Assembly (NCBI RefSeq): GCF_910592395.1
Contig: NC_088312.1
Location: forward strand, 5,766,001 to 5,830,000
Direction: 5' to 3'
From: Lineus longissimus
Lineage: Eukaryota; Nemertea; Pilidiophora; Heteronemertea; Lineidae
Length of the DNA stretch: 64,000 nucleotides
Below are positions 4,253 through 64,000 of this stretch, piece by piece. How positions within the stretch are numbered: position 1 is the first letter of the stretch; each line of letters begins with the position of its first letter. The translations under genes and the position numbers were made by a program. The notes under the pieces are model-generated. The model was not told where the DNA came from. It worked only from the letters and a program-made list of their open reading frames with translations, and searched no databases.

Positions 4253-4609
4253 TTTGGTGTCCAAAGAATTCATGACAGGGCTTTGAGGCATCAGCCATTT
4301 CGGCCAAATCAGCATGGTGAAAGTGTGTTTCTGAAGGATTCGAGGACACCGCAGAATGGTCGGCTATGTCAAATCTGCAGACGAGTCTCCGATGATCTCA
4401 AGGCCCATATGCTGACTCACACAAGAGAGAAACCACATGCATGTGATATTTGTGGAAAACGTTTTGCCCACAAGGGTAATATGAAGCATCATAGAATGAT
4501 CCACACAGGAGAGAAACCATATGTTTGTAGTGTTTGTGGGAAAGGTTTTAACCAAGGAAGTAATTTGAAAGGGCACATGGTCATCCATCTCAGGAATCAT
4601 TCTGTCTAA
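4253..4609 (+). CDS. C2H2 ZF alternative terminal exon (array 1, copy 6; FGV type)
   Basis: Phase-0 exon after ccttttcag, 118 residues, stop TAA. It opens FGVQR. The leader shares HGESV.L.DS with the exon at 3131, so those two share a leader segment missing from the middle copy. The short finger CQICRRVSDDLKAHMLTH is followed by CDIC...HRMIH and CSVC...HMVIH with TGEKPY between them. Same array logic as its neighbours. Confidence 0.87.
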   Translation, partial: FGVQRIHDRALRHQPFRPNQHGESVFLKDSRTPQNGRLCQICRRVSDDLKAHMLTHTREKPHACDICGKRFAHKGNMKHHRMIHTGEKPYVCSVCGKGFNQGSNLKGHMVIHLRNHSV

Positions 4610-5118
4610 ATTCTTTGTAATGTCTTATTGGTCTTTGGTTCAAGAAATCTTGCTGTGATCATCGGTGGTCTTTGAGGTTGAAGTTGTGAGGCTTCTTTAA
4701 TTGAAGTACAAGTCAAAGGTTCTAACCATTTGATGCAATATATCCTGCCTGACCCCCTGTTATTTTCTGGAAGAAGTCTGATTGGAGTCAAATGTACATC
4801 TAACTTGTCTTTAGATTGTCTTTGGATTGTGAGGAGGGTGTGTGTTTATGATTCGGTACAGTTTATCTCTGTTCTGTATTGCTCATTGAACGAAGAGTGC
4901 AGCCAAAGTTGAAATCTTGAGTGGGGAGGAGTACACATTATTTTATTGTAATCACAGAGAATGATTTATATATCATATGGTGAATTCTTCTCTTCCAGAC
5001 AGCATCTAAGAAGGCTATTACAAAAATATTGTCAGGCAGATAACGATTCTTTGCATTTGAAAGGACAAAGAAGTGTATCACTATAAAATTCAATTGGTTT
5101 ATCCTTGACTCTTTTCAG

Positions 5119-5487
5119 ATTAGAAGACTCCAAGGGGGTGTCATAAATTATCCTGGTAGTAGTATGCTTCAAGGTGATATCGATACTGAAGATATGGACA
5201 ACAAGCACTTCTGCAAAATCTGCAACACATTGGTGATCAACCTTGAATTTCACATGCTAACTCACAAAAGAGAGACACAACATCGGTGTGATGTTTGTGG
5301 AAAATGTTTCACTCGCAAGGATAATTTGAAGCAACATCAGATTATCCACACAGGAGAGAAACCATTTGTTTGTTCTATTTGTGGAAAAGGTTTTAATCGT
5401 GGTTATGGCCTGAGGTCCCACATGTTGGTCCATGTCAAGAAGTCACCTGCAGTAAACCAATTTCTTTTCAGATCATTGTCAGCCTAG
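5119..5487 (+). CDS. C2H2 ZF alternative terminal exon (array 1, copy 7)
   Basis: Phase-0 exon after actcttttcag, 122 residues, stop TAG. A divergent leader is followed by a short finger (CKICNTLVINLEFHMLTH) and two normal fingers (CDVC...HQIIH and CSIC...HMLVH) joined by TGEKPF. It has an extra 18-residue tail after the last finger. It is the last ZF exon of the first array; a strong AATAAA at 6141-6146 could end its long 3' UTR. Confidence 0.85.
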   Translation: MRRLQGGVINYPGSSMLQGDIDTEDMDNKHFCKICNTLVINLEFHMLTHKRETQHRCDVCGKCFTRKDNLKQHQIIHTGEKPFVCSICGKGFNRGYGLRSHMLVHVKKSPAVNQFLFRSLSA

Positions 5488-7494: not shown

Positions 7495-7510
7495 AGACGG
7501 TGCTCTGCAG

Positions 7511-8146
7511 ATGAAGAACGGAAACATGCCAGAATCTCAAGAAGAGAGCGCAAACCCATTTCCTAACATGCAGGCAGAACTGCACCGGAAAGGATCAATC
7601 CTTACAAAAGCTTGGGCTGATCTATTCAGCTACCTAACCAGATATCAGGCCGATCTGATGGTGAAGGAAAACGCTGTAGAGATTGCACAGAAAGAAGTCG
7701 ATACGCGTAAGCAACAGATCGAAGAGATGAAGTCTTTATCGCTAGATTCTGAAGAGTTTTTAAAGTTGCAGGACGATATGCATGGGAAGGAGCGGTTGTT
7801 GTTAAAAGTACAGTCTGAACATTCTGTGACTGAGACACAGTTGAAGCAAGTCCAGTCTGACTTGACAAACCATATGGAACTGTTGGAAAACTCGCGAGCA
7901 GATTTATTAGACAAGCATGCGGAATTGATTCGATATCGTGGAGATATCGAACGGTTAAAGTCTGAATTGACTATCAGGGAAGAGCAGTTACAAATTAAGG
8001 ACAATTTGTTGAAAAAGTTACAGTCACAGTTGATGCGGGAGAACATGGAATTAAAGGAACAGTCTGAGATGGATCGACACGCCCTGCTGCTTGAAAGGAG
8101 CGCACATGAAATAACAAGAAGAGCACTTAAGGACAAACCGAAATCA
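7511..8146 (+). CDS. Coiled-coil exon of the second ZF unit (probable start exon)
   Basis: It encodes 212 residues starting at ATG 7511. A short polar leader (to about residue 25) is followed by about 170 residues of heptad-like coiled coil rich in Glu, Lys, Gln and Leu, presumably for dimerisation. The donor GTAAGG follows 8146 and leaves phase 0, exactly the phase of the Ser-rich exon and all ZF exons downstream. Two acceptors precede it: tttcag ending at 7494 (strong, out of phase) and ctctgcag ending at 7510 (adjacent to the ATG). The simplest reading is a 5' UTR junction at 7494 with translation from 7511. If the donor is not used, the frame stops at 8167 and AATAAA follows at 8384. I do not recognise the family. 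Confidence 0.75.
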
Positions 8147-8478
8147 GTAAGGACAAATTTCAGTTGAAAACACTGCAGTTGTTTGCAGCTGGGGAGCTGG
8201 GTTACATCTGAAATTCATAAGCGAGGTTGCCTTATCTCTTAATGGTTATGTGCATGTGCTGTCTTTGGACTTTTCGTTTTATAGATGAGAAATTGAAATT
8301 GTGATGGAGATGGAGATTTTGGGCTCTGAAAATCTTCATAGTTGAAATTTGTGTAGTGCTAAAGTTACTCAACTTGATTTGAAAATAAAGCCCATTTTCT
8401 GGTATACACACATGTTCATTCTACAGATGAATTGTATTTGTACCTGCCTTTACTATATCAAGCCTCTTTTACTTCCAG

Positions 8479-9141
8479 GGGTCGCCCGTGACGTCTTCAG
8501 CGACAGACTTTCCAAACTCTCCACCAAGTCTCGCCCTCTCTGTTGAACAAAAGGACACCGGTCTGTCATCCATTATATCTGCAGTCGAGAAACAGGCACA
8601 AAGACAGCACCAGTTGATTGAACAGGACTGTCACATCATGTCAAGTTCTCAAATGGATCTTCCAATAAGTTTAAATCAAGGTGCTAGTGATGGTATTAAC
8701 TATTCAAGATCAGAGACCTCTATATTACACAATCCTAATCAAAAATTATGGGGCAATCGATCCAGAAGAGCAAAGAGATTTCGACCAAATCACCCGAATG
8801 AATCGAACGCTTCTCTCAGTCAGCCTATATTTCCAAAACAGGAACCAGTTGAACCAAGTCATTCCTCCTCGCCTGATCATGCTGACCAAAGTGAGGTTTT
8901 CTTTCCGTTGTCTGTGTCCGAGGATGCGAATGAGTCTATGGACACTCCAGGTGTGGTTGGGACTGATACCGAAATGAAGTCAGTTAGTTGTAGACCTGCA
9001 TCTGGCATGTCGGGGTCGCCAGAGACTAGTGAAAGTAGTCAAATTGGTCAAGGGTTTGGTGCAAGTTCTGGGACAAGTGAGGGTCAGGGGCTGATGTCAG
9101 TACCTGGGGCAATGCCACAGGACAGTGGAGGTGATTCAAAG
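8479..9141 (+). CDS. Ser-rich low-complexity exon of the second ZF unit
   Basis: A 221-codon exon between acceptor cttccag and donor GTAGGG, phase 0 at both ends. The product is rich in Ser, Pro, Gln, Gly and acidic residues, with a basic patch (RSRRAKRFR). No folded domain was recognised; it looks like a disordered linker or regulatory region. The matching phase upstream (8146) and downstream (10195, 11026, 11750, 12612) supports a coiled coil / linker / fingers protein. Read-through of the donor gives a stop at 9249 and a finger-less form. It could be a cassette, since skipping it keeps frame. Confidence 0.72.
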
Positions 9142-10194
9142 GTAGGGATAAATTTAGTTGTGTCACTTAGTGAGACTGGGTGGCAAAAAGAAGTAATACA
9201 GAAATCTGCAAAATTGGGTGAATTGCACGAAATGAACAGCCCCAGATGATGGCACAAACCACAGCAAATCCTGAATTCATCAGTGCCAACATATTCAGTG
9301 CCAGAGATAGGTGCAGCATTGTCAGTCGAAAACAAAAAACGAGCTGTTGCGTGTATTTCATTGAGTTCACCTACTTCTGTAGATTTCCTGTTGTCCCTTC
9401 TAAAGCCACGCAGCTCTTTTCTGGAATGCATTCATCAGAAATGATGTGGAGAGTTAATTTTGATGTTTAGATGTTGGCAATTTTTGGTTCATGCTTACTT
9501 TGGGCCTTACACTAAGTTCCTTAAAAAAACATGATTTGGGTTGTATATAAGTATGCAGATGGCCAATTGAATGGTAAGTATGTAAGCATGTAAAATTTTA
9601 CCGGTCAGATTATAAATTTGACTCGTCACAATATAATTTGTGCGGGTATCACTCGCATTACTTTTGATTGGCTGATGTCACCTTCCCTCTATTATATTTA
9701 CGTTTGATACTGGTTAGCAAAGCTTTGTCTATAGCTTATCTGAGATACTAATCCATACCCATTGGGGCCTTGGACATTCAGTTACATGTACTTGGGCATG
9801 AATTTTGAGTAACATATATTGAAGAGAGAAATAGTCAGCACAAGGATGAAATATTGTGTGCTCCATTGCCATGCTGTTGGTTTAACCCAGACCAGCAAAT
9901 TCTACGGGTAGATCAGTTTGGTCTACCTCGATTAGCCGGTTGTAGCCATGGCATGTTTGATGAGCTGGTTATTCCTGGGACTGCTCATGTGAAGATAAAA
10001 TCAAGGTCTTGAGAATGTTTGATACCACCCCAGAAAGCTCCACACATGCCAAGTCAAATTCGGCCTCTTCTGAGTCACTTCATTACACTTCTGATGTAAG
10101 ACCATATTGTGAGTGACTAATCTGTCCATCGGGATACATCCCACACAGAGAATTGGATTCTTGTCCCTAATATCAGCTCTTTGCTTAATTCCAG
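9142..10194 (+). other. Intron before the second ZF exon array
   Basis: About 1 kb with no coding frame of note. It would be the intron joining the Ser-rich exon to the first ZF exon of the second array. No repeat or RNA gene was recognised. Confidence 0.5.
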
Positions 10195-10434
10195 CGGTTC
10201 TTCCTGAAACATGTTATAATGTCCAGAACACCCACTGGCCAGCAGATATGGAAGTGCAAGCTATGCCATCAAATGTGTGCCCGAAAATACAACATGACCG
10301 TTCATATGAGGCTCCATACAGGGGAAAAGCCATACTCTTGTAGAATATGTAATATGACATTTGCTCAAGCGGGGACTCTGAAATACCATCGATTTAAAGT
10401 TCACAGCAGCTCATTGAACAATTGTGACCGGTGA
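10195..10434 (+). CDS. C2H2 ZF alternative terminal exon (array 2, copy 1)
   Basis: Phase-0 exon after ttaattccag, 79 residues, stop TGA. It has two fingers, CKLC...HMRLH and CRIC...HRFKVH (the latter with four residues between histidines), joined by TGEKPY. A second possible in-phase acceptor (cagcag, ending 10245) sits just before the first finger. It is the shortest member of the second array. Confidence 0.82.
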   Translation, partial: RFFLKHVIMSRTPTGQQIWKCKLCHQMCARKYNMTVHMRLHTGEKPYSCRICNMTFAQAGTLKYHRFKVHSSSLNNCDR

Positions 10435-11025
10435 ATTCGGCAGGGGCCAATACACGTTTAGTTGTATTGTCGCATGATTCCGATATGACTTGTTCTCACC
10501 TCAGCTCTGTTCCATCCATCAGAGAGTCAGGTGGAACTGTATTGTCGTACTTGCTTTTACTAGTTTTAGGTAGGGACTAAACCCAATTTTCACTGTCTAA
10601 TTTGTGGTGCAAACAAAGCATGTAGCATGTAGAATCACTTCTTGCAGGATATTTTCCATCAAATTTTGGAAGGGTTCAACAGAGAAAACTTGACTGCATG
10701 GAATTAATTAGTGACTTTTGTTTATCTGCAGATTCTCAAGGAAAACCTGAAATTTCTTCTTTTAAATGAGATGACAATAGATTTTAAATTCTTGGGTAGC
10801 ACTTGACAGTGAGTGAGTTATCATTATTTGCTTTAGGAGCAAAAAATGAACAAAAATCCCTATTATTCTAGAGAACACTGAATTTAGAATTAATTGAAAT
10901 TATTCAGTATACTAGCATGTTCAGTGCTACCTCAGAATGCTGCATGAGATAAAATTGCAAATTATAAAAAACTTCCTGCCAAAATAGTGATTTTACAATA
11001 ACGCTACTCTGCTTTCCACTTTCAG
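10435..11025 (+). other. 3' UTR / intron between array-2 ZF exons
   Basis: No coding frame was recognised. This is AT-rich sequence between the stop at 10434 and the acceptor ending at 11025. The similar spacers at 11416-11749 and 12179-12611 also hold nothing identifiable apart from polypyrimidine tracts at their 3' ends. Confidence 0.45.
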
Positions 11026-11415
11026 GAAGAATCGGGCTTGGATGATTTTCTGGCTTTGTGTAAAATGCAAAAAATTTGGCAGTGTCCCATTTGTAATAAA
11101 ATCTTTCCGGACGGTCATTCATTGAGGGTGCACACAAGGGTACATACAGGAGACAAACCATTTAAATGTTCGCATTGTCAGAAACGGTTCACGCAGGAAG
11201 GAAATCTCCGCCGTCATATTCGCATTCATACAGGAGAAAAACCATATCAGTGTCAATTCTGTGACCGGGGATTTCGGAACGGTTCAGATTGGAAACAACA
11301 CGAAATGGACCATCAGTTGAAGCCGCATCGATGTCCACGGTGTGAGAGAGGATTTGCTAGCATAGCTGGGCTTGAGAACCATTTGAAACTTATGACTTGT
11401 AACAAGAAGGATTAA
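11026..11415 (+). CDS. C2H2 ZF alternative terminal exon (array 2, copy 2)
   Basis: Phase-0 exon after ccactttcag, 129 residues, stop TAA. It carries four finger units: CPIC...HTRVH, CSHC...HIRIH, CQFC...HEMDH and CPRC...H. The last ends HLKLMTC, making it a CCHC-type unit. TGDKPF and TGEKPY linkers join the first three. Three closely linked fingers would suffice for sequence-specific DNA binding. Confidence 0.86.
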   Translation, partial: EESGLDDFLALCKMQKIWQCPICNKIFPDGHSLRVHTRVHTGDKPFKCSHCQKRFTQEGNLRRHIRIHTGEKPYQCQFCDRGFRNGSDWKQHEMDHQLKPHRCPRCERGFASIAGLENHLKLMTCNKKD

Positions 11416-11749
11416 AGAGATTGAGATACAAACTATTGGGACTGGGTTATCTGGACATGTACAGCAGGAGAGTCAATACTAATTATAAACATCTTTTCTC
11501 TTTAGATAAAATCTTCTGGTACACACTTCAAAAAATGTGCTAATATTTTTCAAGGTTGAAAAGTTTTGTGGTTTAGGTAATTCAATCATTTCCAAAATAA
11601 TTTACAAGATAGAAACTCGGTCTGTCATCAATCTATCCCTAGACCCAGGTCACAACAGGTTTTCCATGCCCAATCTATATAGATGTATAATCGAATGTCA
11701 AAAATAAGTACATTTTGATAATTCGGCACTTTGTTTCCTCTTCTTTCAG

Positions 11750-12178
11750 AACTTTCTGCTGTACATGTCCCCGGAAAAAACAGAAAAGCCGTGGGTGTGC
11801 ACGGCTTGTCGTAAGACTTTTCGAAACAAGCAGCTTGCTGAGGTTCACATTCGCACACATACAGGAGAGAAGCCATACGTGTGCGAATACTGTGAAAGGA
11901 GTTTCGCCCAGTATGGCAACTTACAAAGGCATGTCCGGATTCACACAGGAGAAACACCATTCAAGTGCTCATTTTGTCAAAAAGGCTTCAAAAATGGCTC
12001 CGATTGCAAACAGCATGAATTCACGCATTTGGATAAACCTTTTTCTTGCACTGAGTGCATGAAGGGCTTCCGTACTGAAATGGCTCTAAAGACACATATG
12101 ATGAAACATTATACGGCTCAGGAAAGTCAGCAAAGTGTTGAGTTGATAAAGGGCAGTGGTGATACTCAGGCCCGCTGA
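11750..12178 (+). CDS. C2H2 ZF alternative terminal exon (array 2, copy 3)
   Basis: Phase-0 exon after cttctttcag, 142 residues, stop TGA. It has four C2H2 fingers: CTAC...HIRTH, CEYC...HVRIH, CSFC...HEFTH and CTEC...HMMKH. The architecture and third-finger sequence (KNGSDCKQHE against RNGSDWKQHE) make it the sister of the exon at 11026. Linkers TGEKPY and TGETPF are present. Confidence 0.86.
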   Translation, partial: NFLLYMSPEKTEKPWVCTACRKTFRNKQLAEVHIRTHTGEKPYVCEYCERSFAQYGNLQRHVRIHTGETPFKCSFCQKGFKNGSDCKQHEFTHLDKPFSCTECMKGFRTEMALKTHMMKHYTAQESQQSVELIKGSGDTQAR

Positions 12179-12611
12179 AGTAATATGACCTTAGGTGATG
12201 GACATTGGTCATCTGTTCAGGGTATGCACTGGTTGTGAAGATTTTTAACATCATTTCAAAAAGCACAGTTACTTTTCAGATGGGTCAGCAGCAAAATAAA
12301 CTATGTGTATTCCATGTTACAATGTAACCACGATGCCCAATCGGTGCAACTCTACTGGGTGCGGAATAGATTTCCAGTAACTTTAGACCCTCCTGTTCCT
12401 TTGTTTGTGGTGAAATTGAGGGATGTAGGTAATGGAATACGCCCCTCTGAATTTTGTTTGACAAATGATTCAGGCGGGTCTATTGTGGCCAGCAACTGGT
12501 ATATTCATTTGATTGGGCACCGTGGTAATGATGTTGAAGGGTTACATGTATACATTATTTGAAATGGAGTGGACTGTTTACTTTAACTTGTACTCTGTCT
12601 TACTCTTTCAG

Positions 12612-12938
12612 AAAAATGTGGCTGTACTCAACATTGGGACATCAAAATTCTTGCAGTGCACCGTTTGTGAAAAAGTGTTCTCAGATCGCCATGGATTGGA
12701 GACGCACCTTCGCATTCATACAGGTGAAAAACCATACATTTGTGAATTCTGTCACAAGGGATTTTCACAAAAAGGGAATTTAAAAACCCATATTAATCGA
12801 GTTCATTCAGATGAGAGACCATTTGAGTGTACCTTTTGTGAGAAATCATTTAAAAATAGTTACGATTTTAAACGCCATGTGCTTCGCCATAAAGTGAAGC
12901 AGGAGGCCTCCTTAGATTTAGATACACCTGGAACGTAG
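12612..12938 (+). CDS. C2H2 ZF alternative terminal exon (array 2, copy 4)
   Basis: Phase-0 exon after actctttcag, 108 residues, stop TAG. It has three fingers: CTVC...HLRIH, CEFC...HINRVH and CTFC...HVLRH, with linkers TGEKPY and SDERPF. It ends the second array; candidate polyadenylation signals lie at 13722-13727 and 14248-14253. Confidence 0.85.
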
Positions 12939-15210: not shown

Positions 15211-18200
15211 CTAACTTTTTGAGGCATTTTTGAAAAATTTCAAAGTCCGATCAATGTCCGAGTCATCTGAATAAGTTGGTGGTGGAGGGAACTCATTTTT
15301 TCTGCCTTCTCTGAATGAACTACTAGCAGTTCCACTTAACTGTCCTGTTCCACTTGTATTGGGCTTAGAATGACTGGAAGAGTCTTTGTAATAATCAGGC
15401 GGGGGAGCAAATTCTTGTGATCTTTTATCCCATTTTGATGAACGAGGTTTGTACGTATCGTAGTCATACGAAGGTGGTGGAGCAAACTCTGATGGTCTCT
15501 CGTCACGTAATCTGTCCATTTGTCTTGCCCAGTTCCAAGAGCTGTCTTCATCTGAAAAAAATATAACAGATTATAAGAAATGAGCAAGAGCGTTTTCAAC
15601 AAGGAAACCCATACATCAACTGATGAGCACAAAATACAGAAGGACAGAATCTGATCGCCATACAGCCAGGAAAGGTTCTGACCTAGAGTCCGGTAAGTTC
15701 AATCCATCAAGCATTCAGAGTGAACTTAAACTTAAACATCTCCTGACCTGTTTTTCCTTTGTCCCACTCCCTCTCTGATGCCTCTTTCTCTTCCTTTGGT
15801 AACGGACCAATGAATTCTTCTTTTTCCTTCTCCTCACTGTCTTCATCGCTATCCTTTTCTTCTGCAATATGATTGAGGAATATTGAATTGATAAGCAGAA
15901 CAATATAGGAGTGTGGCAGGGGCTACTAAATGATGTTACCAATGATTAGTCTTAGTCTGCTCTTCCATCGACTTCCATACCACAAGGACATGATTTGGTA
16001 AATGTCTTCAACTCGGACTTCTTCTTCACTGATTATATTCACTTTAAAACAAGTTTTACATATTTTGATTTGATGCCAATTATGACCCAGTTATACAGAT
16101 TTCCGCCAATAGTTTTGAGGGTCTGAGTCCACATGTGTTATAAAAATCTGATATTGATTTACCTTCCTCATCAGATGGCAGAGGATCTAATCCCATCTTC
16201 ATCCTCTTCCTCATCTTGACTTTTTTCAGCCTCTCTGCCTTCAAAGCCTTCCGCTTCTCCTTCACCTTCTCTCGCTGGGCACGCTGATTCTCTGTCTGTA
16301 GAGGAAATACAATTACATTTGAGGCAATTGGGCCCTTAGACAAAACAGTTTATCATTCTGTGCAAATTAGAGGCATTTAGCTGAAGCTGTTATTTAGTGT
16401 AAATAAAACGGCTTTGAAAACCAATGAACATTACCGGTAAAAAGTATCATGATATAGGGTTAAAGACAGGGCCAAACACAGAAAAATCAGTGCATTCGCA
16501 CACTATCTATACCTGATTTCGAAGATCATCCAACGTCTTCATTTGTTCCTTCCTTTGTTCCTCATCCTTTGCAAACTTGTAGTAAGCAGTGCCGTGATTT
16601 CGGACCTCTGGAAACAACACATATAAACTTACATTCGAGGGCACCATGGCATCTTGACAGCTAGAATCCCTTTAAATATTTCAGAAGTATTTAAAAGATA
16701 AGCAATCTGCCAAGAGCATGAGATTTAGTAATTTTGTAATTCTACTGAAAGTATTTGCATGATTCGGTGCTTCCATCTATAAAGCTTCTGCACCTTCACA
16801 CATACAATTCTTATCAAGAATATGAAAATTTGACTTACCATCAAAACGGATATTCTCATAGTGTACAGGTCCGGTTGGTTTCTCCATGGCTTCCTTCTCT
16901 TCTTTCTCCCACTTCTCTCTCAGCATCTGGCGGTACATGTCAGATGATAGCAGATCAGGCATCCCCTTGGCATCAAACTTCACACTGGTACCCCCACTGG
17001 AGCATTGCCCTGGCTCGTTTCCCAGTTCCCTGTCCATTTCCATGAATTTAGGAAGATCTTTTTTCATGCACCTCCTAGTCCGACCAAGTGAGTCAAGATA
17101 ATCAACCCTGAAATCCAAACAGACAATACTTTCAACTTATTTACAAGGAATTTGACATGGCTCTGTTTGCTAAGGAAGGTGGCCAAGGCAACAGAACATG
17201 TTCATCACAAATTGAATTTCTGTACTGGTATGGCAAAATCACATACTTTTGTTGTTTTCTTGGAAATTCATGCAAAATGATAAAAGTGACCAAAGGTGAG
17301 CTTGTCCTTTGGCTCTAGCAAACCAAACACAGACTTGCATAGAACCCATCCAAGTGAGAATGATCAGAATCTCACTGGTGACGGACTCTTTCTCAACTTT
17401 AGACAGAGCTACTGACTTGACTCTTCCTTGACTTAAGACAGCTACTGTCTTAAGTGGTGAGCAACAAAGAACACAGAAGTCAAAGCAAAACGTTCTGAGG
17501 AAACTTGACAGGTCTATTACCATTCTTCTCCAGGATTGCTTGGAGGAGGGTCACTCCCTTCTTTTTCTTCTCTTTCCTTGCTCTCTCTTTCCCTCTTCTT
17601 TACATGAAAATCATAAATGGCTTTCTGCTCAAAGTCTACCAGGTAAGGACTTTCCTCTAATTCATCTGCAATCAAATATTAAGAGTGAATTTTCAGTAAA
17701 TGCCAAAACAGTGAAGATTGTAATATTACACAGCACATCTTTTAATATTTGAATAGCCAAGTTGTTTTTTCAACTGCGGGAAATCCTAGGTTTAGGAGAG
17801 GAGCAAAGTTTCTATAGGGGTTCTATTTCAAATTTATTGAGGTTTAACTTCAACAAGTCTTACCTGGTAAGTTCTGAGGATCTGTTAACTTTTCATACAG
17901 TTTTGACTTGGCTTCAAGTGCTTTCCTGTAAAAAATGATACAAAATATTAGAGTCAACAAGAGAATGGTATGTCGTAAGTCAGACTATATCCCTTTTCAA
18001 TGCAGAGAATACATGGTTCATAACTTTTTTAATTTTCTAGAGATAATGGAAGGTAGAACAGGTACTCGTTAGCAGTGTGCCATTGACTGAACTAAATTTA
18101 ACTAACCTTGATTTTTCCAAGTCATCTTCTTCTTCTGCTTTTGCTTCCAGATCTTTTTGGGCTCTCTCAAGCACACCTATGTTTTTCTTGTCCCATATAT

Positions 18201-50254: not shown

Positions 50255-50721
50255 TTTTTGTAGGAATTTTCATTGTTTGGGAGAGTATTTAACCTTTATG
50301 GCGATATTTGCCCCCTTCAACCTCTGGCTAAAAAGCATTGACACAGTCTTGCATACTAGCCTCTGCCCATTTTGCAGAGTAGTAATGACCACAGGCTTGG
50401 TCGGGAGAGATCACAATCTTGCAGCACCAGAATATGTGTCATTGGGATGGCAGTGGTGATAGTACTATGCAAAACGAATTATTTAATTCGTCACGGAACT
50501 AATGACAGTTCAAGTTGTCTCGGATCTGTCCTGTCAATTTCAGGCAGAGGTGCACTAACAAGTCTCCTAGTCCTACAAACTCAAATCAAGCGCAAGCTGA
50601 TACTGTCAAGTAGCTTAGTGGTTTTTGTCTAAGAGAGGTCCTAGCTTCCAGTCTGTTGTCACAATCGCCTATTTCTCAAAGCTGAAGTTATGGCCTGAAA
50701 AAGTAGTCAAAGGACATGCTT

Positions 50722-50958
50722 AATTTCATAGTAAATTGGCGAAGGGGACAGTGGTGCTGTCTAGCGGTAAAAAGTGGAACTGAACGTTTTGGGTAAAGAT
50801 TTCAGTTCTTCATTCTGCCGCGAGACAGCGCCACGCTCAATTTCACAGTAAATTGGCGAAGGCGCCTGTCATGCTCTCTAGCGGTAAAAAGTGGAACTGA
50901 ACTTTTTCGGCAAAGATATCAGTTCTTCATTCTGCCGCGAGACAGCGCCACCGTCGCC
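50722..50958. repeat. Tandem pair of 117-bp palindromic units
   Basis: Two copies, 50722-50838 and 50839-50955, are near identical over most of their length. Each is itself a long imperfect hairpin: GGTGCTGTCTAGCGG ... GGAACTGAA pairs with TTCAGTTC ... CCGCGAGACAGCGCC across a 16-base loop (arms 50752-50784 and 50801-50833 in the first copy). It could be a foldback element that duplicated in place, or a hairpin RNA source. Confidence 0.75.
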
Positions 50959-51552: not shown

Positions 51553-54500
51553 CTAACTCTCCTCCAACATCGCAATGTTCTGTAGCTTCAACTTCTTTGC
51601 CTTCTTGGCTGGTCTGAATTCGGCAATCTTTCGTTTCTTTGCATCACGTTTGGCAAGATGTTTCTTCATTTTCTTGCGAGCGGCTGCCTCTGGGTTCGAC
51701 ACAACCTGAAAATATAATCATGATTCAATAGGACATGAAAAGGCAATTTTATTTTTAAAAAACAATTTTAAACTGACGAGAATTATGTCCAAGACAAAGT
51801 ACAACTGCCATCAAGTAATGTCTACAAAGAGGAACCCCCTCACTTGAGCTCGACATGCCTAATGCTACAGGATGACCCTCTACTGAGATTCAGAGTTGAG
51901 CTGAAGATTCAAGTCTACAGCGAGTTACTCTAACATAAGAAACCCCACTATTGGGGGTATATTGATATTACATCACAGTCAAAGGACACTTTTAGCCCAG
52001 AATTTCATGTGGTAGAACTCTTGTTACAGCCAAAGAAATGAATCTATGTCTGCTTCTGGTTTGAAATTGTGCACATTTTCTTGGTAGCCCTGTGTGGTTG
52101 TGGACGATTTGAGCTGAGTCATTACTTTGATTTCCTTGTTGTCCAATGTCTTGGAGATGATCCATTTGCATATCAAACTTACATTCACCGCTTTCTGCCT
52201 CTTCCTTTCTTCTCTCTTGGTGAATACATCCTGCTGAACTCCAGCGTAATTCTTCGTGAACGTCTCCACGCCGACTATTCCCTTCATCATCTCTATCACT
52301 TCATTGCCGAGGACTTTTAAACTTTCATCTGAAACAGGATTGTGACGTATTCAATCCAATAATACGGTACAGCTCCAGTATCACAGAAAAGATGGATTAG
52401 ACTCTCTCACCTATTCTTGATAGGCATGACCTGTGGATGTCTTCTACCCTAAAATTAAAACTGGAAAGAACTAAGTGCTTTTGGAAAGAAGTGGCTCCCT
52501 GACCTGTTGGCCAGGAGTCTGGCGCTCTAACTACCATGTCACCACACTCCAGTATTATTTGTCTTTTTCTGTCAGTCGCATACCATAAAGGTAGAGGACA
52601 CTCCTCTGCTTCATTGCAAGTTAGCTCCTTGAACATGAAAGTTAATAGCATAAGTGACCACTTGGTCGCTGCTCCTTATCATCCCCAGAACACAATTTCT
52701 GTCGAGCAAGGATCAATTGATGGAAGGTGCAGTATAAGATTCTTACCAGCAGCTGACGAGGAGTCGGTCGTCTCCCTGAACAGCGGTGGAAGCATGAAAG
52801 GCAGAAACTCAGGGAGGTGGTCTGATCCGAGGTCCACAGATACGGCAGCCATCCACTTGAACACACTGCTTCTCTAGAGAAGAAAGGTGATGTTTATATC
52901 ATACAACTTTTGCAGAAAGAAACTGAAAAAGAACAGTCATGTTTTCTCTTTATTTGTCCCCAGCAGCATATCACAAACAAACAAACTACAAGAACTGCTT
53001 ACTATGAATAACTGTACTGTTGATAATAATACGGCATGCCCAGGAAGATATCCAGCCAAACATTGGGATACCAAGACCTTATATACCATATCATTGCTCA
53101 CAAGCTCAAAGTCTTACAAATTCATTACGATAGACTAAGGTTTTAAACCATCACATATGAACCTATACACGTAGTTTACCTTTAATGTTACTTTCGGATT
53201 TGTCGTAGCTTCAAATTTGGCCTCTCTTGTCATTTTCTTGGTCAGCCACTGTAAATGTAGAGTGGTGAGCTCTGTTTCATCACTAGGTGGCTCTTGGGAT
53301 GTGATAACTCGGATCGCCTTGGACAGAAATACCAAATTTTTGATGATCTGAAAGAAAGGTTCAGGAAGATTTAGCAATAATGATAGTGATCTTTTATTTC
53401 TAACGTTTTCTCTTACTTTTTCTCAGCATGTGCCCTACAAAGGATCTGAGGCACTTGCCAAGTCCCGTTTAAAGGATGATGCAACCAAAGTAAAGTTATT
53501 TGCCCAAGGTAACAAGCAATTCAGTCACACAGTCAAAAGAATTAATTTTCCAAGTTTGACATCAATCACAAAAGTGGACTATCACATTCCCAATTCAACT
53601 GCCTGCAGACAATTGAGATAATCAAGAGAAAACGTCAACTGTTGATACTGAAAGGTGAATCAATAATAGTGTATAATAATAATATTGAAAATATTTTGAT
53701 CAGTTGAAAGATTAAATGAGTTAAAGGGAGTATTTCCAGATCTATATGAAAAACTTTCGAAGAGTGTATTTTGTTGCCTATTTGCACCGTCGGTGACAAT
53801 TTGAGCAGAATTGACAACCAAAATGGACAACAATGAATCATTCTAGGACAAGTAAACAATCCCAAGACAAGTCCAGCCTGGGCATATATTTGAAGAAAAG
53901 AATAATTTGCGTATTGTAAGTATTTTCTGAAGTCATGATAAAAGAACTGCCTACAAATAGAAGTAAATAAGGGCCTTGAAATAGTAAATAGAGCATAGCC
54001 TTAGATAAGTCTAGCCAAGTCAAAACCTGATTTCAAAAAAGACTTTTGTAAGCTTTTACAGGGATGTTAGGTTGCATATAATTGACCCAGAATATTTCAG
54101 ATATAGATATAAGAGTCCTCAGACGTATTCACCAGGTCCTTAAGAATGTAAATGAAGTCTGATCTATTGAATGTTAGAGCAGGCACCACACTGCTTCGAT
54201 TTTAAAATATTAGTACAGATGCTATAACTGTACCAGTTGGTTTGGATCATACAAGAACTGCCCTGGATCATTGGATATTCCTACTGCACTACCCAACGAA
54301 AGAGGCAACTGAACACACTGCACCAAAACTGTTACAAGCTCCATTTCTAGACAATTTCGAAGCATAATCTTGAATAATTCACTCTGCACAGGATTTGAAC
54401 TCATTCTATCTAGGATTATCCAACAAACTTGCTTTGAACTCATGCCATTTGGGGATTCTTTACCACCTCCCTCTCCAGGATTATTAACCATTTGTACTTT

Positions 54501-57500
54501 TTTATCAATGATTATCTTCTGAACAAGTTCAATTCAGAATGGAACTTCTGAACTTATATTTAAGACTATGAACTTGGCCTTTCCACAATCGAATTTTGAT
54601 ATTGTTTTATTCTGGATAATCTGCCTTTTGAACTTGTTTGACTCGAAACTATCTATTTTTCGAAAACATTCCAATCAAGATTATCTAATAGCAGAACAGC
54701 AACCTGAATCCAAAAAGAGATCTTTGAAAAAACATTCGGAAAAGACATTTTCAGAACCTCATTCAGGAAATAATTCCGCTGAAACTCGTCCAGGAAATAA
54801 TTTGTCCAAAATGTCAACAACAGTGAAAATGTCCATCCCAACAGGGAGCACAATGACCCAGAAACAGACAACTACAACAACGACAACAACAACAAAGAAA
54901 CCAAAACAAGTCATGTTCAAGGTCGAAAAGAAAGAGATGAAGGTCGAGTCAAGCCCGATACTGATGGGACCAAAAATGATGCCACCAGGACAGCAAAAGA
55001 AAAAATCAAAAAAGCCATCGGATTCCTGCGACGCTAGCATGATCTTGGATAGTTGCATTCATTGCTATGATGGCCAACATGTCTCTGACGAGGGCAACCT
55101 TACTTTCGAGGAGTTTCATGATCTGTTCTTCCACAGCCAATACCCACATAAGACAATTATTCTATGCGACATCAACGTGCAGCCAAGTGGTGAAAAGCGC
55201 CGGGTGAGGTTCACCAGCTGCGGGAAATTCACACAAGAGAATAATACCGAGCGTCACGCTGAGGATTTCTTCGTGAAATACATTGAGGAGAAATTGACAC
55301 CCCGATTGATCGACCAAGAAGAAGTAAGTATCAAACTGTGGATGAACTACAGCCCGTGTAACCTCCCTGATTACAACTGCGCCAGAAACATCCTCTCTTG
55401 CATGAAAGATCTAAAACGCTGGGAGATCGAGGCATCGCTGACGGTCGTCTTCAGCCACTTGAATGAAATCGAAAAAATATTCCCCAAGGAACACCGAAGA
55501 GCAAACTCAGATGCCTTACTTCTTCTGCTCATGGATCGCGATACAGAACTTCGTCCATTCAATGGCTACGACTGGATGGAGCTGCTTTTTCAACGCACCC
55601 CCGATGCCAAGGATTTTCTCTCTATGGATTCGGAGGACATACAAGACCTGATAGAGAGTCGGAAAGAAACTGACAAGGTGAACCGTGCGTATTTGTCCAA
55701 AGTCTTGAAGGACCACCGCAAAGAGTTAGAAAATTGTATAGGCACTGTTAACCAGGAGCTAGGCAAGCTAGCATTTTATTGAGGACTGAACCAATTCATG
55801 AAACGAAAGAGGACACAACCCTAGTTCGTTGGTTGCACTATCTCATAAGGAGTTTCGCTACAATTCACATCACTTGAAATGGCTTCCATATTTTAGAGAT
55901 TCCAGGAGAGATGAGAAAGAAGTAAGAATTTAAGAAGGACGCATTAGAAAAGCTGGTGGGTTCTTTGGCTTTTGCTCATGCACCGGAACAGAAATGAATG
56001 TAGTGCTAATAAATCTCATTATTTTGTAATTAGCTTTGCATAGGAACATAATTCTATAGCTTATATTTTCATATGGGCGTATTTTTCTTTTTAGAATTAA
56101 ATCCAACCCTAGCAGTTTGTTTGAAAAATCAGCCAGTTATGTTGGAATCTTGGTCAACATAGTCAGTCGAGGAATGTGTTGATTTTCCACTTCAAAATTA
56201 TTTACTTTTAAAAATGCACCTTGATAGCTCCTCAACAGTCCCCAGAGAATTTTCAAATCAGACACAAACCTTATGAATGAAAGTGCCCCAAGATGAATGG
56301 ACTGTTAAGGTTCAACAATTCTATTCACTTCATCCATTGAGGTCAATTACTGAATCCGCTCTCCTCTTACCCTAGTCTCCTAACATAGGCGACACTTACC
56401 CCAAATGAACTATGTAGGTTCTCAGGATCAGACAGACCAGCATTTTGGGTCACAGAATCTACACAGCGAACATGCTGGAATTGCTACAAAATCACTTCAT
56501 TTCTGGACCACAAGATTTCTTTAGGGAGGTTTCATAAAACGAGAATGACCTCTAAACACAACACATTCCCAAAGAACACAAGCTTTGGCATTAGTATTAA
56601 TGGTTACGCTAGCAATTAACCTAATCATCTCCTTCCTATTCATAGGCCAATGGTACATTTCACAGGTATATATGAAATTTAATGTGTTTTTGGCAATAAA
56701 GTAATCAACATTAACAAATTGTGTGAATTATTATGTTATTCAACAGGACCATGCAGTCAGATCAAATACAAGAAGCCGAATTGAAATGCACCCATGAGAG
56801 GAAAAGTTGAGGGTGTTTAAAATTTGAGCAACAAAGGTATTCAACATAATTTTACTCCACAAGTCTGTCATCTCTACAGCCATATAAACCCGGTAAAATT
56901 GGACCATCTTAACATTCACTGACACTAGGAAATATAAAACCTGTCCAGTTTGGGGTGGGTTGTCAAAATTGGAGCTCCTATTTCCTTTTCAATTGATGAC
57001 TCAGAATCAAAATATAAAATTCACGTCCAACACTTTTCACCAGTGAGGGGTTCTGTAATAAACAATTCATTTCCTTGCATCAGTTATGTCAAGATGGTTC
57101 CACATATAAGGAAATGAACGATTCTCCTACCTGCTCTGCTAGATCCTGGTCCACTTGAGACTGGAACTGAGAGATACACTGAGCAGCAATTGTCCTCAAC
57201 TGAAAACGGGAAGATATGTCTGTCAATTCTTTAGTTACATTGTATTTCAGAATAATGCAGCACATGCAACTACATCCAAACTGAAGAACAGAACATATTC
57301 ATGCCATGCCACTCACTTCACAAACATGCAGATTCAAGCCGGAGGATGACTGGCTTCAAAAGAAGAAATACACATTTGGATGGAAGAGCCTTCACCGCAC
57401 TGCGAAGGATGGGACCAACAAGTCCCCCAGATCTGGAATAACATTCCAAGTTCATTGTGTCTGTAGTGACTTCAGAGATTGAGAATGCTGAAGTATTGAA

Positions 57501-60500
57501 CATAAGCTTTCATTTTATGCATAACATCCCTCTTTAAAATAACAACAATGCACAAACCTTATTTCTTGTATCGACTTTCAAATACTCTGAAACGACTTTC
57601 TTCTTCTTTGCCTTTGGTGTTGTAGTCTCATCAGCAGATGTGAGTTCTTCAGGTTTCCACGCACCGAACATCAAGCCCAGTAACTGAGCAGATGCAAGTC
57701 TTACCCAGGTGTAAGGGTAGAGGAGGAGCTCAATGGTATAATCTGAACAAGAAAACATAACAAACCGATATTACAGTCAATGTCTGAACTGCAGTGTCCT
57801 TGTTCCGCTGTTACTCCACGCCCCAGTGTCAGGTCAAAACTAGAGGAAGCAAGCCTTATCCCTGATGCTTGAATGTCAAACTGGATCACTCCCCATATAC
57901 AACTCAGGAATATTGAATGCTTCAAAATCAGCCATCATGCCCAACCTTATTATTTGTTAAATGGCCACCGAGTTATATAGTCACAATTATGTTGTGACTA
58001 CCTTTATCACAACTGCCTTATGATATAAGCAAAACCCAATACGGCAGAATAAGCTTACCCCATATTTTGTTAACATGTTCTGTCCACTTTGAATCCCTCA
58101 CAACACCACACTCCTTGAATATCTTGATGAGAGTGGAGAGTGTTATGAATAGCAGATGGTCACTGTTTCTCACGTCAACGTCATCAGAGCACTGCAAAGG
58201 GAGGATTGGCATGATATGAGGAGCAGAGCTCATTGATTAACAAGAATAAACCTCAATTGTAAATTGTAACCAAAGCAGATCAAGATATGAGCAACTGGCA
58301 CTTAAGGGATAAAATGTGATTCCTTATATAGTGGTGTCAAAGACAAAGCAGACTGAAGATACCACACAGTTAACTATAAACTCTAACCCTCCAAAGATCC
58401 CATTAAGTGACCCAAGAGGGACTCCAACTCCAAAACCAAAGCAGGAATTGGAAACACTGGGCCTTAATTGGTGCGAAAGTGATACAAATAAGCGTAAAAT
58501 CTGCAGAAGTTTTCACACTATATACTGCTGGAGAAAACTTTCTGGAAAGATCGACAACATTTACCGAAGTGTATTTGCTTGGTTCCATATTATCCACAAC
58601 TAATGGTATTGCATTCTGCAGGCGGCCGTCAAACTTGGTGCTCTCTACCTCCACAAACAGACCAATCAGCTGCAGGCCCAGTTGACGATGGACGCCCTTT
58701 TGATCGCCGCACCAACTCAATGTAACTGTGAAGAGTTCATCTCTACGTGCATTATCAACCTGAAAAATCAAAAGAATCGTCAAATTCAATATCGTCCTTG
58801 ATAGACAGGGGTCCACTTAGGAAGTTTCCATGGCAATGATTATCAATAACTAATTGAATTCACACACACCTTCGCCAGTAATGTTTTGATAACTAATGCA
58901 GCCTTTTTCCGACATTCTGATGATTCATCGTTGATCAACCTCGAAGCCAGGGGCACGAAGAACATCCCAGCATATTCATCGACAATCTGGACTGGAAAGC
59001 TTGTGAAGATTGTTGCCAGCAGCTCAAGGACTGAATCCCGTCCAGATTCTAGTTCATAATTCAGCTGCATCACGAAGAATTCCAGGTGGCGCTTCAGCTT
59101 GGTTCCGAGCGGGTAATTAACGAGAAACTGCATGAGGACTTGGCGACACTGGCGTCTGACATGCGGAGAATCAGACGTGATGGATAGTTTTGATATTTTC
59201 GTCATGACGTCCACCATTTCTGGTATGTGTAGCTTGCGAGATAGGATGGCCTGGAGAAGGGAGAAGGCGGTTGCCTGCCTGGTGTAATCATGGATATCTT
59301 CCTCAGCATATCCCAGCAGGATCTGCAGCTGCTCGGTGTTGATGACGTGGTACTTAACATCTCGAACAAGGACAGTCACAGCCTGAAAACATGAGTTACA
59401 ATGTTAAGAGATTGATTTCACAATAAATTGAAATATTGCTATTTTCCATTACTGAGCGAGAGAAATCTTGGTGATTAAACACTTAACTACCCTCAGTGAA
59501 AAAATACGAATCAAGTTTTGCTTCAGAATCAAATTCCGTTAGAGAATAAAGCCATAATTTAATTCAAGACACTCACCTTGAAGCAAACTACAACAAGGTC
59601 GAAGTTTTCTCCCTTGGCTCCACCAGCCACAGCATAATTCTTCAACAAGACGAACAAACTCGAGGCAATCTTTGTGATATTCTCCTTCAATGACGGAAGC
59701 TCAAACTTGAACACCCAAGACAGACATCGCAAAGCTAGGGTGGCAATCTGGAAGATTGAAGACATAAGTATTTGATAACATTATGTTAAATACAAAAAGG
59801 TCACAGAGTACATTATGATACAGAATATTGGAGAAACAAATTATACCATACCTTGACATGTTTTGATTTGATGCACTCTGTCATTATTGTGATGAACGGG
59901 TCAAGCATCTGGAGATGTTCGATCTTTGACGGCACTAGGCTGGATCGTTTCAGGAGGTAATGCAGCAACTGAAAACCAGAGAAAATGTTAGAACTCCTCG
60001 AGTAATGGGAGACTGCATGGGGCCTAACAACAGCGATGAAGATCAGGCACCCATTAACAACGAAGGAAATAACTTCATCAGTTGGTCAACCATGCACTCA
60101 CCTTGCACTGATAAAGGAAATGTTTTCCTTCCCACAGACTCATGTTCATCACATTGATTATTTGTTTCAACAGATGAAGATGTATAACTTTCACAAGCGG
60201 TAGATCCAATTCCAGGCGAGCATTCAGAATACTTGTTCTCAAACACTACATGAAAACCAAGGGGATAACCAACCTGTAAACCAAATTCCACGAGTACATG
60301 TAAGTTGGTTTTAAGTGTATTGGTAGCTTTCACACCACCTCTTGGAGGGGCTTTGGGAATGAGGTATGTACTCTGTGGCTGCAGACGGGTGTCCTGTGGC
60401 TTGGGAGCTTCTTTCTTTGCCCTGGAATAATAATTGGTTACAGTTAGTAAATGACACATAATGTTTTTCCCAAGAACAGTTCTCCCAAACTTTCTTAACA

Positions 60501-63500
60501 AGGGTTATTAAGTCACCTTACATCAATTGACCTGAGATGTTAAATTGAGATTCCTCATATCAGGTACCAAGGCAATTATAGACTTAATTCAAGTCAACAG
60601 TACGCCGTGTGTTGGACTCACTATGCCAAACAAGGAGTCACTTCACCAAACAACCAAACTGGTGCAGACTGTAGCAGCGCACAGCAAAACATGCACAATG
60701 GGTACAAAATGCAGTTGAAGAAAAGAGCAGCTTACTTTTCACTTGAGGTTACAAGAGGCATGGTCTCATTGACAAGTCCATGGACAAAGACCATCTGCGT
60801 CTCCACTGGCAGGTCCTTATTCTCCATAAGACCCAGGGTGATCCTATGCAGTAACGTCTCCACTTTCTTAGTCACCTTGTGATTCTGGTTGGTCTCTAGG
60901 ATCTAGAAAATGGAAGAAATAAATGTAAGGTCTTCTATTGTTGCAATCATCAAAAAATCTACCGATCTTCACTTTAACATACAATATAACACAAAGCATG
61001 TCCCAAAGAAATTCTTTTCACCAACAAATCAACTTACCTCTTTCAATGGAAGTATAATCTTCGTGATTGATGCTTTCCCAACAAATCTAGAAACCATTTC
61101 ATACGAGTCAAAACTTTTAATACTCTTCGCTTCCATCAGCTTCCCAACAATGCCATCCACCTCCTTCTCAGCACTGACTGCACCGAATAACTCCTCATTG
61201 AAGATCTCAGTGAGATTCTCCAGGGAGGAATCAAGATCTCCGGCCTTGAGTTGTGGCTCCATGTTCTTCAGGAGAGCGTGAACCGTGTAGCCAAGGACAT
61301 GAAGCTGAAACAAGGAGAGTATGATGACTGGAGAGATAAGTGAGGTGTCTCGATCTTCTTAGACTTATAGATGATGGCATCACAAATATTCAGAACCAAG
61401 CTGATCACTTCAATTTAGTGTTTACCTGATAGCCTCTCCTGAGGGCCGCCCTGAGCTCCTTCAGGATGTAATTGAAGTATTTGTTCCCTAGCGACGACAT
61501 GATCTTGATGAGAGTATCACGCGCTACGTCTCGGATGTCTTTGGCACGAGAACGCAGGAAGGCACACACTTTCAACAGAACACTGAAAAAGATCAAATTT
61601 GATAGTGACTTATTTGTTGTGTCTCATTCAATTCTTGGCTACTGATGGTTAACTATATCAGCAGTAAATATAAGTCCATAAAAGTCTAAATGTGACACCC
61701 ACCTTGGTAAATACACATTGAGCACCCCCTTTGGCATCCTCTGTAGTAACTTGACCATGGCCAGGGCAATGGGAACTCGTAAGATCTCACTATCTTCAGC
61801 ATATTTACTCTTGGCTGCCTTGTGCTCATCATCACTCTTTGCCTACAAGAAATGGAACACATATATTCAAAACATTTAAATGCACTCTACTCTTAGAAAT
61901 AGGACCATTACAATTCGATATAAACATTTTCTTTCGCTGTGATTCAGAGAAACACTTCAGGATATCAAATCAGTTTGTTTTACGGCTGAGTTTGCCTTTT
62001 TATATCACTCAGTTTTGAAGCAGGGCAAATGTTTTCTCTCGAAGGAGCTACTTTGTATGACATGTGAAAAATTTATAAGTTCATGCCGACACACCCCTAT
62101 TAGTACTAACCTTTTCAATAAGACAATTTCTCAGGTCAGGCACAATACTTTTTACAACTGTCTGGTGTATTCGCGTGGCAAGTTCACGTGAACACTTGAC
62201 AATGCCATCCACAACAGTTTGTGTCTCGGCAGACGTGTCATCCTGGGTGTCGTCTGCTCCAGGTTCTTTCACGTCTGCTTCCTCATCACTATCTTCAACA
62301 ATGTCGTCTGCTGGTTTTTCCTCAACATATTCAAGGACTGGTTTGGTCTTTTTCACTGAATGAGAATATAAGGTTTCTTAGCATGAATTAGCCAAGAAGT
62401 ACTGATGACAGGTCACTAACGTGTTTTATGTAAATGAAGAATAAACATCAGCACTGGTCGGTCTTTGTTGACATGTAATCCAGGATGTCGTCTGCAGCAG
62501 GTTCTTTTACACTAGCTTCTCCATCAACAGTGTTTGAGTTCTCCCATTTTTCCTGATGTTGACATGAACAGTTCAACTTACCTGCATCATTGACTGGCGG
62601 CTTCAATACATCCCCAGCTCCCTGGGTGGCAGACAGATCATAGTGGAAGGCATTCAAAATTGATACTACTAATCTGCAACACAGAAAGACATGGTCATTA
62701 ACGCTCAAGATCATATCGATGCAATGATATTTAGCTTACCAAGGAAAGTGCAAGTGTGTTCATCATTGGAATCCAAATCTCTAGCTATCACTCAGAGCAG
62801 TACATAAAGCTTGTGTCATTTGAACACTGCACTTGATCTAGTCACAAGGTATGGGTGATCGCCACTTAATGTCCTACAAACATGATTGGCTTGAAACCCA
62901 CATCATTAATATCCTAAGCACAGACTTAAGCAGAACCAATTGAAGAGCAAGCAGTATAAACCTATACTCACTTGACCATAGTTTTTTGGTTTTCAATACT
63001 CTTTGGCAACAAGTAAAGGTACGATTTGAGAAGTTGCAGATATTTTGACCACGGTAGTAATTTACAGATGCATCCAATAGCTTCAATGGCTGTGTCGACT
63101 AGGTTGTGCTGCTTGGCATATTCCGGACATGTGATGTAGACAGAGGCCATGGGCATCACGTAGGAGAGAAGGATGTTGGCAGGGATTGGGTGGTTTGCTA
63201 AATGCTTGATGAATTTTTTCAGGCCACGAGCTCGACGATGTGTCTGCAGAATAGAAATGATTATCAAAATCCATTGATTATAGAAATACCAGTGAACACT
63301 AAGATAAGTTTGAGACTAGTCACAAGGTGTACCATTCTTTGGCAACACTAACTTAGTGAGTGAACACCTTGAGCTGCCCTATGCAGGTTCGTACTGCACA
63401 ACAGCTATTTGGCCTATCCATGACAAATTAGCTTCTTTCATTATTCAATCTCTATCAATAAACCACACAAAAACTAACAGATAGAAAAAATCGATCTACT

Positions 63501-64000
63501 AGGAAAATCATACCTGTATATGACATATATTCTCAAAGAAATCCACCTCAATGTCTGTGTCTGTCAGCTTACTGAGATGATTAAGAGCGCTGTGCTGAGG
63601 GAAGGCCCTGACGGCCATAGCAAGAACTTTGATGAATTCATGTCTCGGCACCTCACTTTGTGACTTGATGCCTGATTTGATCAAGGGTAGGAGCGTTTCC
63701 ACGACAGTTGCATTGTATGTTTTGTCATCTAACTCAATGCTGGACAGTCTCCCGATGATCTCCTGCATGCAGTAGGATGAACTATCTCGGAGGGACATGT
63801 CATCAGTCTGAAAAAAATAAAATGGTCTAATGTGAGAGAAAACCACACCTACCCTGAACAGTACTGAGAGACTCATCCCTGCTATCACAATAGGAGCAGG
63901 TTGAACCAGGAATCAAGCTAGCAACCTTAGGCAAATTTGATATTTAGTAAAAAGGCAAAAGCAGCATTGCAACTTACTGTTGTGAGGACAAATGCACAGT
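51553..64000 (-). CDS. UTP20: UTP20 / DRIM, C-terminal ~1,260 residues (5' part beyond right edge)
   Basis: Exons, 5' to 3': 64000-63978 (partial), 63807-63514, 63243-62972, 62673-62582, 62355-62111, 61842-61703, 61582-61426, 61304-61038, 60902-60736, 60421-60274, 59968-59852, 59747-59577, 59382-58870, 58759-58565, 58191-58059, 57742-57558, 57199-57131, 53347-53180, 52873-52747, 52328-52183 and 51705-51553. Phases agree throughout. UTP20 is a giant HEAT-repeat protein of the nucleolar SSU processome needed for 18S rRNA maturation. Diagnostic stretches: DYTRQATAFSLLQAILSRKL, DVARDTLIKIMSSLGNKYF, FNEELFGAVSAEKEVD, YPYTWVRLASAQLLGLMFG and a Lys/Arg-rich tail ending MLEES. An acidic, poorly conserved insert (EDSDEEADVKEPGADD) lies in exon 62355-62111. 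Confidence 0.95.
54568..55782 (+). CDS. AID/APOBEC-like cytidine deaminase, single exon, nested in a UTP20 intron
   Basis: A 404-codon uninterrupted frame. Residues 1-81 may be 5' UTR: the first Met (54568) starts a hydrophobic stretch (about 12-24), and Met82 (54811) is an alternative start giving 323 residues. Then come a Thr run (101-109), a Lys-rich linker (110-150) and the deaminase. Zinc motif: H230-A-E232 in TERHAEDFFVKYIEE, with S-P-C264 and C271 in MNYSPCNLPDYNCARN. The HAE and the Ser-Pro-Cys before CAR resemble AID/APOBEC enzymes, which deaminate C to U in DNA or RNA. Spacing between cysteines is six residues, wider than the usual two to four. A helical C-terminal extension runs to 404. 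AATAAA is at 56008-56013. Antisense to UTP20, within the 53348-57130 intron. Substrate unknown; catalytic residues intact. Confidence 0.85.
   Translation: MNLAFPQSNFDIVLFWIICLLNLFDSKLSIFRKHSNQDYLIAEQQPESKKRSLKKHSEKTFSEPHSGNNSAETRPGNNLSKMSTTVKMSIPTGSTMTQKQTTTTTTTTTKKPKQVMFKVEKKEMKVESSPILMGPKMMPPGQQKKKSKKPSDSCDASMILDSCIHCYDGQHVSDEGNLTFEEFHDLFFHSQYPHKTIILCDINVQPSGEKRRVRFTSCGKFTQENNTERHAEDFFVKYIEEKLTPRLIDQEEVSIKLWMNYSPCNLPDYNCARNILSCMKDLKRWEIEASLTVVFSHLNEIEKIFPKEHRRANSDALLLLLMDRDTELRPFNGYDWMELLFQRTPDAKDFLSMDSEDIQDLIESRKETDKVNRAYLSKVLKDHRKELENCIGTVNQELGKLAFY
56008..56013 (+). terminator. Polyadenylation signal of the nested deaminase
   Basis: AATAAA about 225 bases after the deaminase stop, on the same strand, inside the UTP20 intron. 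It supports an independent transcription unit. Confidence 0.6.
62463..62540 (-). pseudogene. Decayed partial duplicate of a UTP20 exon
   Basis: On the minus strand this reads GEASVKEPAADDILDYMST, clearly related to EEADVKEPGADDTQDDTSA in the neighbouring UTP20 exon at 62355-62111. The nucleotides also match over about 60 bases (CATCC.GG.TGTCGTCTGC and the adjoining AGGTTCTTT word). It lies in the adjacent intron with no in-phase acceptor/donor pair, so it appears to be a dead internal exon duplication. Confidence 0.6.

What the first reader, a model, noticed from the sequence alone, without database searches (positions are those of the whole stretch)
54568..55782. Intronless AID/APOBEC-like deaminase with intact catalytic residues
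The frame encodes an H-A-E and S-P-C...C zinc site of the AID/APOBEC type in an apparently invertebrate genome. AID/APOBEC-like families outside vertebrates are known in several invertebrate lineages and have been linked to innate immunity. This copy has an unusual N-terminal Thr/Lys-rich extension and a long helical C-terminus, so it may be an undescribed clade with its own substrate.
Basis: partly seen in the sequence, partly recalled or inferred. Interest (0 to 1): 0.88.

Follow-up and report, generated by a model that had tools for sequence, protein, structure and literature searches.

The report
APOBEC4-type deaminase in a ribbon worm
The frame encodes a real zinc-site protein of the DNA/RNA cytidine deaminase family that best fits the poorly understood APOBEC4 type and sits, without coding introns, inside an intron of a ribosome-assembly gene in what appears to be the bootlace worm; it is a new member of a known family rather than a new clade.

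The parts
54811..55782 (+). probable coding sequence, 323 aa from M82 (context aaaATGt) to the stop
   Evidence: codon-position GC changes from flat to coding-like here; start codons listed; inference, no transcript data
54568..54810 (+). probable 5' untranslated or intronic stretch that happens to be open in frame; the hydrophobic stretch after M1 lies here
   Evidence: GC by codon position 0.37/0.33/0.30
54811..55017 (+). residues 82-150: Lys/Thr-rich linker with an ACN microsatellite; 15 Lys, 14 Thr, 3 acidic of 69
   Evidence: sequence
55054..55065 (+). C163-x2-C166, paired with C28-x2-C31 of human APOBEC4; C218 (55219-55221) is paired with C87 in the two pairwise alignments but not in the five-sequence one
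55105..55587 (+). AID/APOBEC deaminase domain (Pfam matches at residues 180-340)
55255..55263 (+). H230-A-E232: first zinc ligand and catalytic glutamate by family knowledge
55354..55380 (+). P263-C264-x6-C271: the two cysteine ligands, APOBEC4 spacing
55603..55779 (+). C-terminal tail, residues 346-404; modelled largely helical at low confidence; no similarity to the four references
56008..56013 (+). AATAAA polyadenylation-type signal, 225 bases after the stop
53348..57130 (-). 3,783-bp GT-AG intron of UTP20 that contains the whole frame in antisense
   Evidence: joined exon peptide matches UTP20_C at 4.9e-8, over cut-off, and human UTP20 (E 0.0037; ungapped over residues 2535-2566, across the junction)
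57131..57199 (-). UTP20 exon upstream of that intron (LRTIAAQ...LAEQ); its own 5' end is read from a ttttcag acceptor by eye
53180..53347 (-). UTP20 exon downstream of that intron (IIKNLVFLSKAIRV...); donor gtaaac follows

Best explanation
[quoted passage not shown] Shown: a coding-like frame, the family match, and the exact APOBEC4 zinc-motif spacing. Inferred: H230, C264 and C271 hold one zinc ion, E232 activates water, and the domain binds single-stranded nucleic acid and either deaminates cytidine to uridine or, as reported for human APOBEC4, binds nucleic acid without detectable deamination. The Lys-rich linker would add affinity for nucleic acid. Its coding part has no introns and lies antisense inside a UTP20 intron, which fits the early retrocopy origin proposed for APOBEC4 in the literature.
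Confidence: 0.8

Rival explanations
1. A classical invertebrate AID-like deaminase (as in sea urchin and Lingula) whose PC loop gained four residues independently.
Against: Both spacings, x30 and x6, equal human APOBEC4; sea-urchin AIDLs fit PCxxC (PMC5956068); the PC half prefers APOBEC4.
Confidence: 0.12
2. A member of the NAD1 or SNAD4 clades, as the raw Pfam ranking suggests.
For: NAD1 is the top Pfam hit, 36.9 bits, over its cut-off, and 38.6 bits in the genome-wide search; SNAD4 31.4 bits, over its cut-off.
Against: Human APOBEC4, AID, APOBEC2 and APOBEC3A score 100.1, 223.2, 195.2 and 187.5 bits on NAD1, so this model catches the whole family. NAD1 is reported from vertebrates and SNAD4 from sponges (passages of PMC8201067, and PMC11004436). 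No signal peptide is seen by eye after M82; no predictor was run.
Confidence: 0.05
3. A sub-reading of the best explanation: an APOBEC4-type protein that does not deaminate and acts by binding nucleic acid or promoters.
For: Human APOBEC4 showed no detectable deamination and its HIV-enhancing effect survived a zinc-site mutation (PMC4889046, abstract and passages). N299 stands where the four references have Tyr or Phe in loop 7 (alignment).
Against: The four motif residues H, E, C, C are intact. Y261 keeps an aromatic that human APOBEC4 lacks.
Confidence: 0.4
4. A silent retrocopy or decaying pseudogene inside UTP20 (independent of the clade question).
For: No coding introns, antisense inside a host intron; no transcript data; codon-usage score weak.
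Against: No stop or frameshift over 323 codons, coding-like codon positions, intact motif. No parent copy was found with protein queries, which cannot exclude a split, divergent one. No A-run of 7 or more and only one 11-base flanking match remain, so if it is a retrocopy it is old.
Confidence: 0.08

Closest known systems
APOBEC4 (human sequence compared; APOBEC4 and related enzymes reported from cnidarians on)
   Same: HxEx30PCx6C motif; no coding introns; CxxC before the domain; SPCN, an FSxL...E..FP stretch and LxPxxGxxW in the PC half (alignment); a lysine-rich stretch
   Different: Lys-rich stretch lies before the domain instead of at the C-terminus; HAE instead of HPE; Y261 instead of Asn before SPC; N299 instead of the loop-7 Tyr; about 25% identity (42 of 170 aligned pairs); C-terminal tail unrelated by sequence
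SpAIDL1-9 (sea urchin) and LaAIDL1/2 (Lingula)
   Same: invertebrate AID/APOBEC-like proteins with HxE and PC...C
   Different: PCxxC motif and 193-194 aa for SpAIDL1 and SpAIDL4a (PMC5956068); no sequence of either group was held here to compare
AID, APOBEC2, APOBEC3A
   Same: family and zinc motif
   Different: C-x2-C (AID, APOBEC2) or C-x4-C (APOBEC3A), no CxxC aligned before the domain, weaker similarity over the PC half

Membership tests
AID/APOBEC family | match to curated family profiles above cut-off | tested here: met
   NAD1, APOBEC_N, SNAD4, APOBEC2 above cut-off
AID/APOBEC family | HxE ... PC...C zinc and catalytic residues | tested here: met
   H230, E232, P263, C264, C271
AID/APOBEC family | five-stranded deaminase fold with converging zinc ligands | tested here: inconclusive
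   single-sequence models with mean pLDDT 37.4 and 40.5; Foldseek with the second model (residues 165-350): the first nine rows are APOBEC3 or AID, but E 0.10-0.47, TM about 0.2, and 0 matches at E <= 0.001
AID/APOBEC family | C-to-U deamination of single-stranded DNA or RNA | not testable with these tools
   needs a laboratory
APOBEC4 | HxEx30PCx6C spacing | tested here: met
   exact against PMC4889046
APOBEC4 | PF18775 at or above its cut-off of 27.2 bits | tested here: not met
   21.4, 22.4 and 25.7 bits for frame, domain and PC half; best model for the PC half only. I therefore call it APOBEC4-type, not a proven APOBEC4
APOBEC4 | no coding introns | tested here: met
   one frame holds the whole domain; transcript data lacking
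APOBEC4 | closer to APOBEC4 than to AID, APOBEC2, APOBEC3A in pairwise comparison | tested here: met
APOBEC4 | grouping with APOBEC4 in a tree of many species | not testable with these tools
   protein database switched off
Classical AID-like (SpAIDL type) | HxE-x(24-36)-PCxxC | tested here: not met
   six residues between the cysteines; definition from PMC5956068
SNAD (secreted) | N-terminal signal peptide | tested here: inconclusive
   none visible by eye after M82; a hydrophobic stretch follows M1, which is probably not the start; no predictor run

The most novel reading that the evidence does not exclude
The worm protein is an active APOBEC4. With human APOBEC4 it shares, outside the active site, cysteines (C163-x2-C166 and, in pairwise alignments, C218) that could form a second, structural metal site typical of the APOBEC4 type. 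If it deaminates, APOBEC4 was ancestrally a working DNA or RNA editor whose activity vertebrates lost or changed.
Probability: 0.25. Interest if true: 0.65.

Novelty: new member of a known kind. Interest (0 to 1): 0.38.

Why it matters
APOBEC4 is poorly understood: the paper seen here detected no deamination by the human protein (PMC4889046). An intact, intron-free copy in a nemertean, keeping an aromatic residue next to SPC that the human protein lacks, offers a distant form on which activity, substrate and the shared extra cysteines can be tested. I found no held paper that reports it: full-text searches with 'apobec' + 'nemertean' (1 paper), 'cytidine deaminase' + 'nemertea' (the same paper) and 'apobec4' + 'lophotrochozoa' (0 papers); in that one paper the passages seen mention APOBEC only in the background and reference list. 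The main survey, Krishnan et al. 2018, is not held and may cover related sequences.

Tried and rejected
Protein database search: switched off for full frame and domain, so no homologue set, no tree, no deep alignment for a fold. Relatives in viral and prokaryote contigs: 5 and 13 stretches matched a pattern, 0 confirmed. Structure: two single-sequence models, both too poor to use; the Foldseek list is reported, not relied on. Solved-structure sequence search: nothing related (none; two unrelated hits at E above 1). NAD1 as family: rejected because all four references score 100 to 223 bits on it. Second copies: the frame and the domain as protein queries find only themselves. The APOBEC_N and APOBEC4 family queries did not list the window's own gene, so they cannot show absence; NAD1 did. 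These three gave five weak extra places, none over a cut-off. Looked into: C8:3536540 (L010), which I take for chance inside what looks by eye like a tetraspanin gene although Pfam gives its 44 residues APOBEC2 4.1e-4, a warning about such E-values after a genome scan; C11:1620805 (L006), which has stops inside; C1:24431478 (L004), left open. Not looked into: C2:22086079 (L005) and C19:134775 (L007), each with a stop inside. Retrocopy marks: no A-run of 7 or more and one 11-base flanking match. A codon-usage score trained on 22 other frames of the window (2641 codons) was too weak to place the start; not all of those frames have Pfam support. My first guess for the gene at 16780-17136, SLU7, was wrong: Pfam says CCDC174.

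Full report
What is there. The frame 54568-55782 (+) runs 404 codons from ATG to TGA inside a 419-codon stop-free run. In 100 first-order Markov simulations of the window the longest run was 254. Pfam-A puts residues ~180-340 in the AID/APOBEC family: NAD1 5.3e-9, APOBEC_N 5.8e-9, SNAD4 2.2e-7, APOBEC2 5.6e-6, each above its curated cut-off (APOBEC2 by 0.1 bit); APOBEC4 3e-4, below it. NCBIfam, built for prokaryotes, gives nothing at E <= 1.

Zinc motif. H230-A-E232, then 30 residues, P263-C264, then 6 residues, C271. The paper on human APOBEC4 (PMC4889046; abstract and passages seen) prints its motif as HxEx30PCx6C, with E95 and C134. The spacing here is identical at both places. The sea-urchin paper gives H[AVS]E-x(24-36)-PCxxC for the family (PMC5956068; abstract, two of six parts of the text and passages seen). 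The exact APOBEC4 motif occurs once in the six frames of the window and in 0 of 60 base shuffles.

Gene structure. GC at the three codon positions is 0.37/0.33/0.30 over 54568-54810 and 0.47/0.34/0.55 over 54811-55779; 22 other frames of the window have GC3 0.30-0.59. M82 at 54811 has the context aaaATGt. I infer translation from M82 and a 323-aa protein. An AATAAA lies at 56008. Seven acceptor-like sites precede M82, so an upstream non-coding exon is possible. A codon-usage score did not separate the two parts well.

Nested in UTP20. On the minus strand UTP20 is recognised at 52027-52350 (UTP20_C 4.8e-8), 53138-53422 (UTP20_C 1e-4, below cut-off) and 61032-61358 (UTP20 1.1e-30), and at 63511-63912 (end of UTP20_N, 1.6e-7); 57537-57770 matches human UTP20 2472-2528 (E 0.0015). 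The exon in 53138-53422 alone matches human UTP20 only at E 0.74. One exon ends LAEQ at 57131 before GTAGGA, and the next begins IIKNLVF at 53347 after TTTCTTTCAG. The joined peptide scores 33.0 bits on UTP20_C, over cut-off, 4.9e-8, and matches human UTP20 at E 0.0037, ungapped over 2535-2566 across the junction (that piece alone 6.7). The intron 53348-57130 (3,783 bp) thus holds the whole deaminase frame in antisense. This fits the retrocopy origin proposed for intronless APOBEC4 (PMC8201067, passages), but no A-run and only one 11-base flanking match remain.

Genome and copy number. The window's genome has 391,118,348 bases in 30 contigs. Contig lengths C1 29.440, C2 29.188, C5 23.929, C10 19.402, C11 19.188 Mb fit chromosomes 1, 2, 5, 10 and 11 of Lineus longissimus within about 0.01 Mb (29.45, 29.19, 23.94, 19.41, 19.19; part 1 of 2 of the text of PMC8593623). 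C19 (15.889) fits chromosome 18 (15.89), not 19 (13.63). The paper counts 32 scaffolds, not 30, so another version is likely. The species is an inference. As protein queries the frame (E <= 0.001) and the domain (E <= 10) find only themselves, four candidates scored each; the NAD1 family search finds this gene at 38.6 bits. Divergent or intron-split relatives are not excluded.

How it may work. By family knowledge, the three ligands hold zinc and E232 activates water for C-to-U deamination of single-stranded nucleic acid. Residues 82-150 hold 15 Lys, 14 Thr and 3 acidic residues of 69, a basic linker. In the alignment Y261 stands where AID and APOBEC3A have the Trp of SWSPC, human APOBEC4 Asn and APOBEC2 Ser; N299 stands where the others have Tyr or Phe in loop 7. 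Human APOBEC4 showed no detectable deamination and weak single-stranded DNA binding (PMC4889046). Whether this protein is active is open.

Verdict. A genuine, intact, APOBEC4-type AID/APOBEC protein in a little-studied phylum, in a clade already described as old. New member of a known kind. PMC11004436, PMC8201067, PMC13428168 and PMC6651903 were seen as passages only; Krishnan et al. 2018 was not held, and what I say of it comes from papers that cite it or from recall.

Noticed in passing
L004:1435-1755 (genome contig C1:24431478-24431630 +): A 107-aa frame with HAE-x26-PCDAC (YHAEGAW...CSFSPCDACFQD), classical spacing; APOBEC2 9.7e-5 and APOBEC_N 6.6e-4, below cut-offs, genome-wide E 0.58. 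It may be an exon of a second, intron-bearing AID/APOBEC-like gene, or chance.
   Followed up: partly
783-12935 (+): A row of C2H2 zinc-finger exons, apparently several tandem genes; Pfam was run on one (11002-11412, C2H2), the rest are read by eye.
   Followed up: partly
16780-17136 (-): CCDC174 GRSR domain, 5.2e-16.
   Followed up: no
50718-50951: Two copies of a 117-base tandem repeat, 89% matches.
   Followed up: no
52027-63912 (-): UTP20 gene from the end of its UTP20_N domain to near its C-terminus; it probably runs on beyond the window end.
   Followed up: partly
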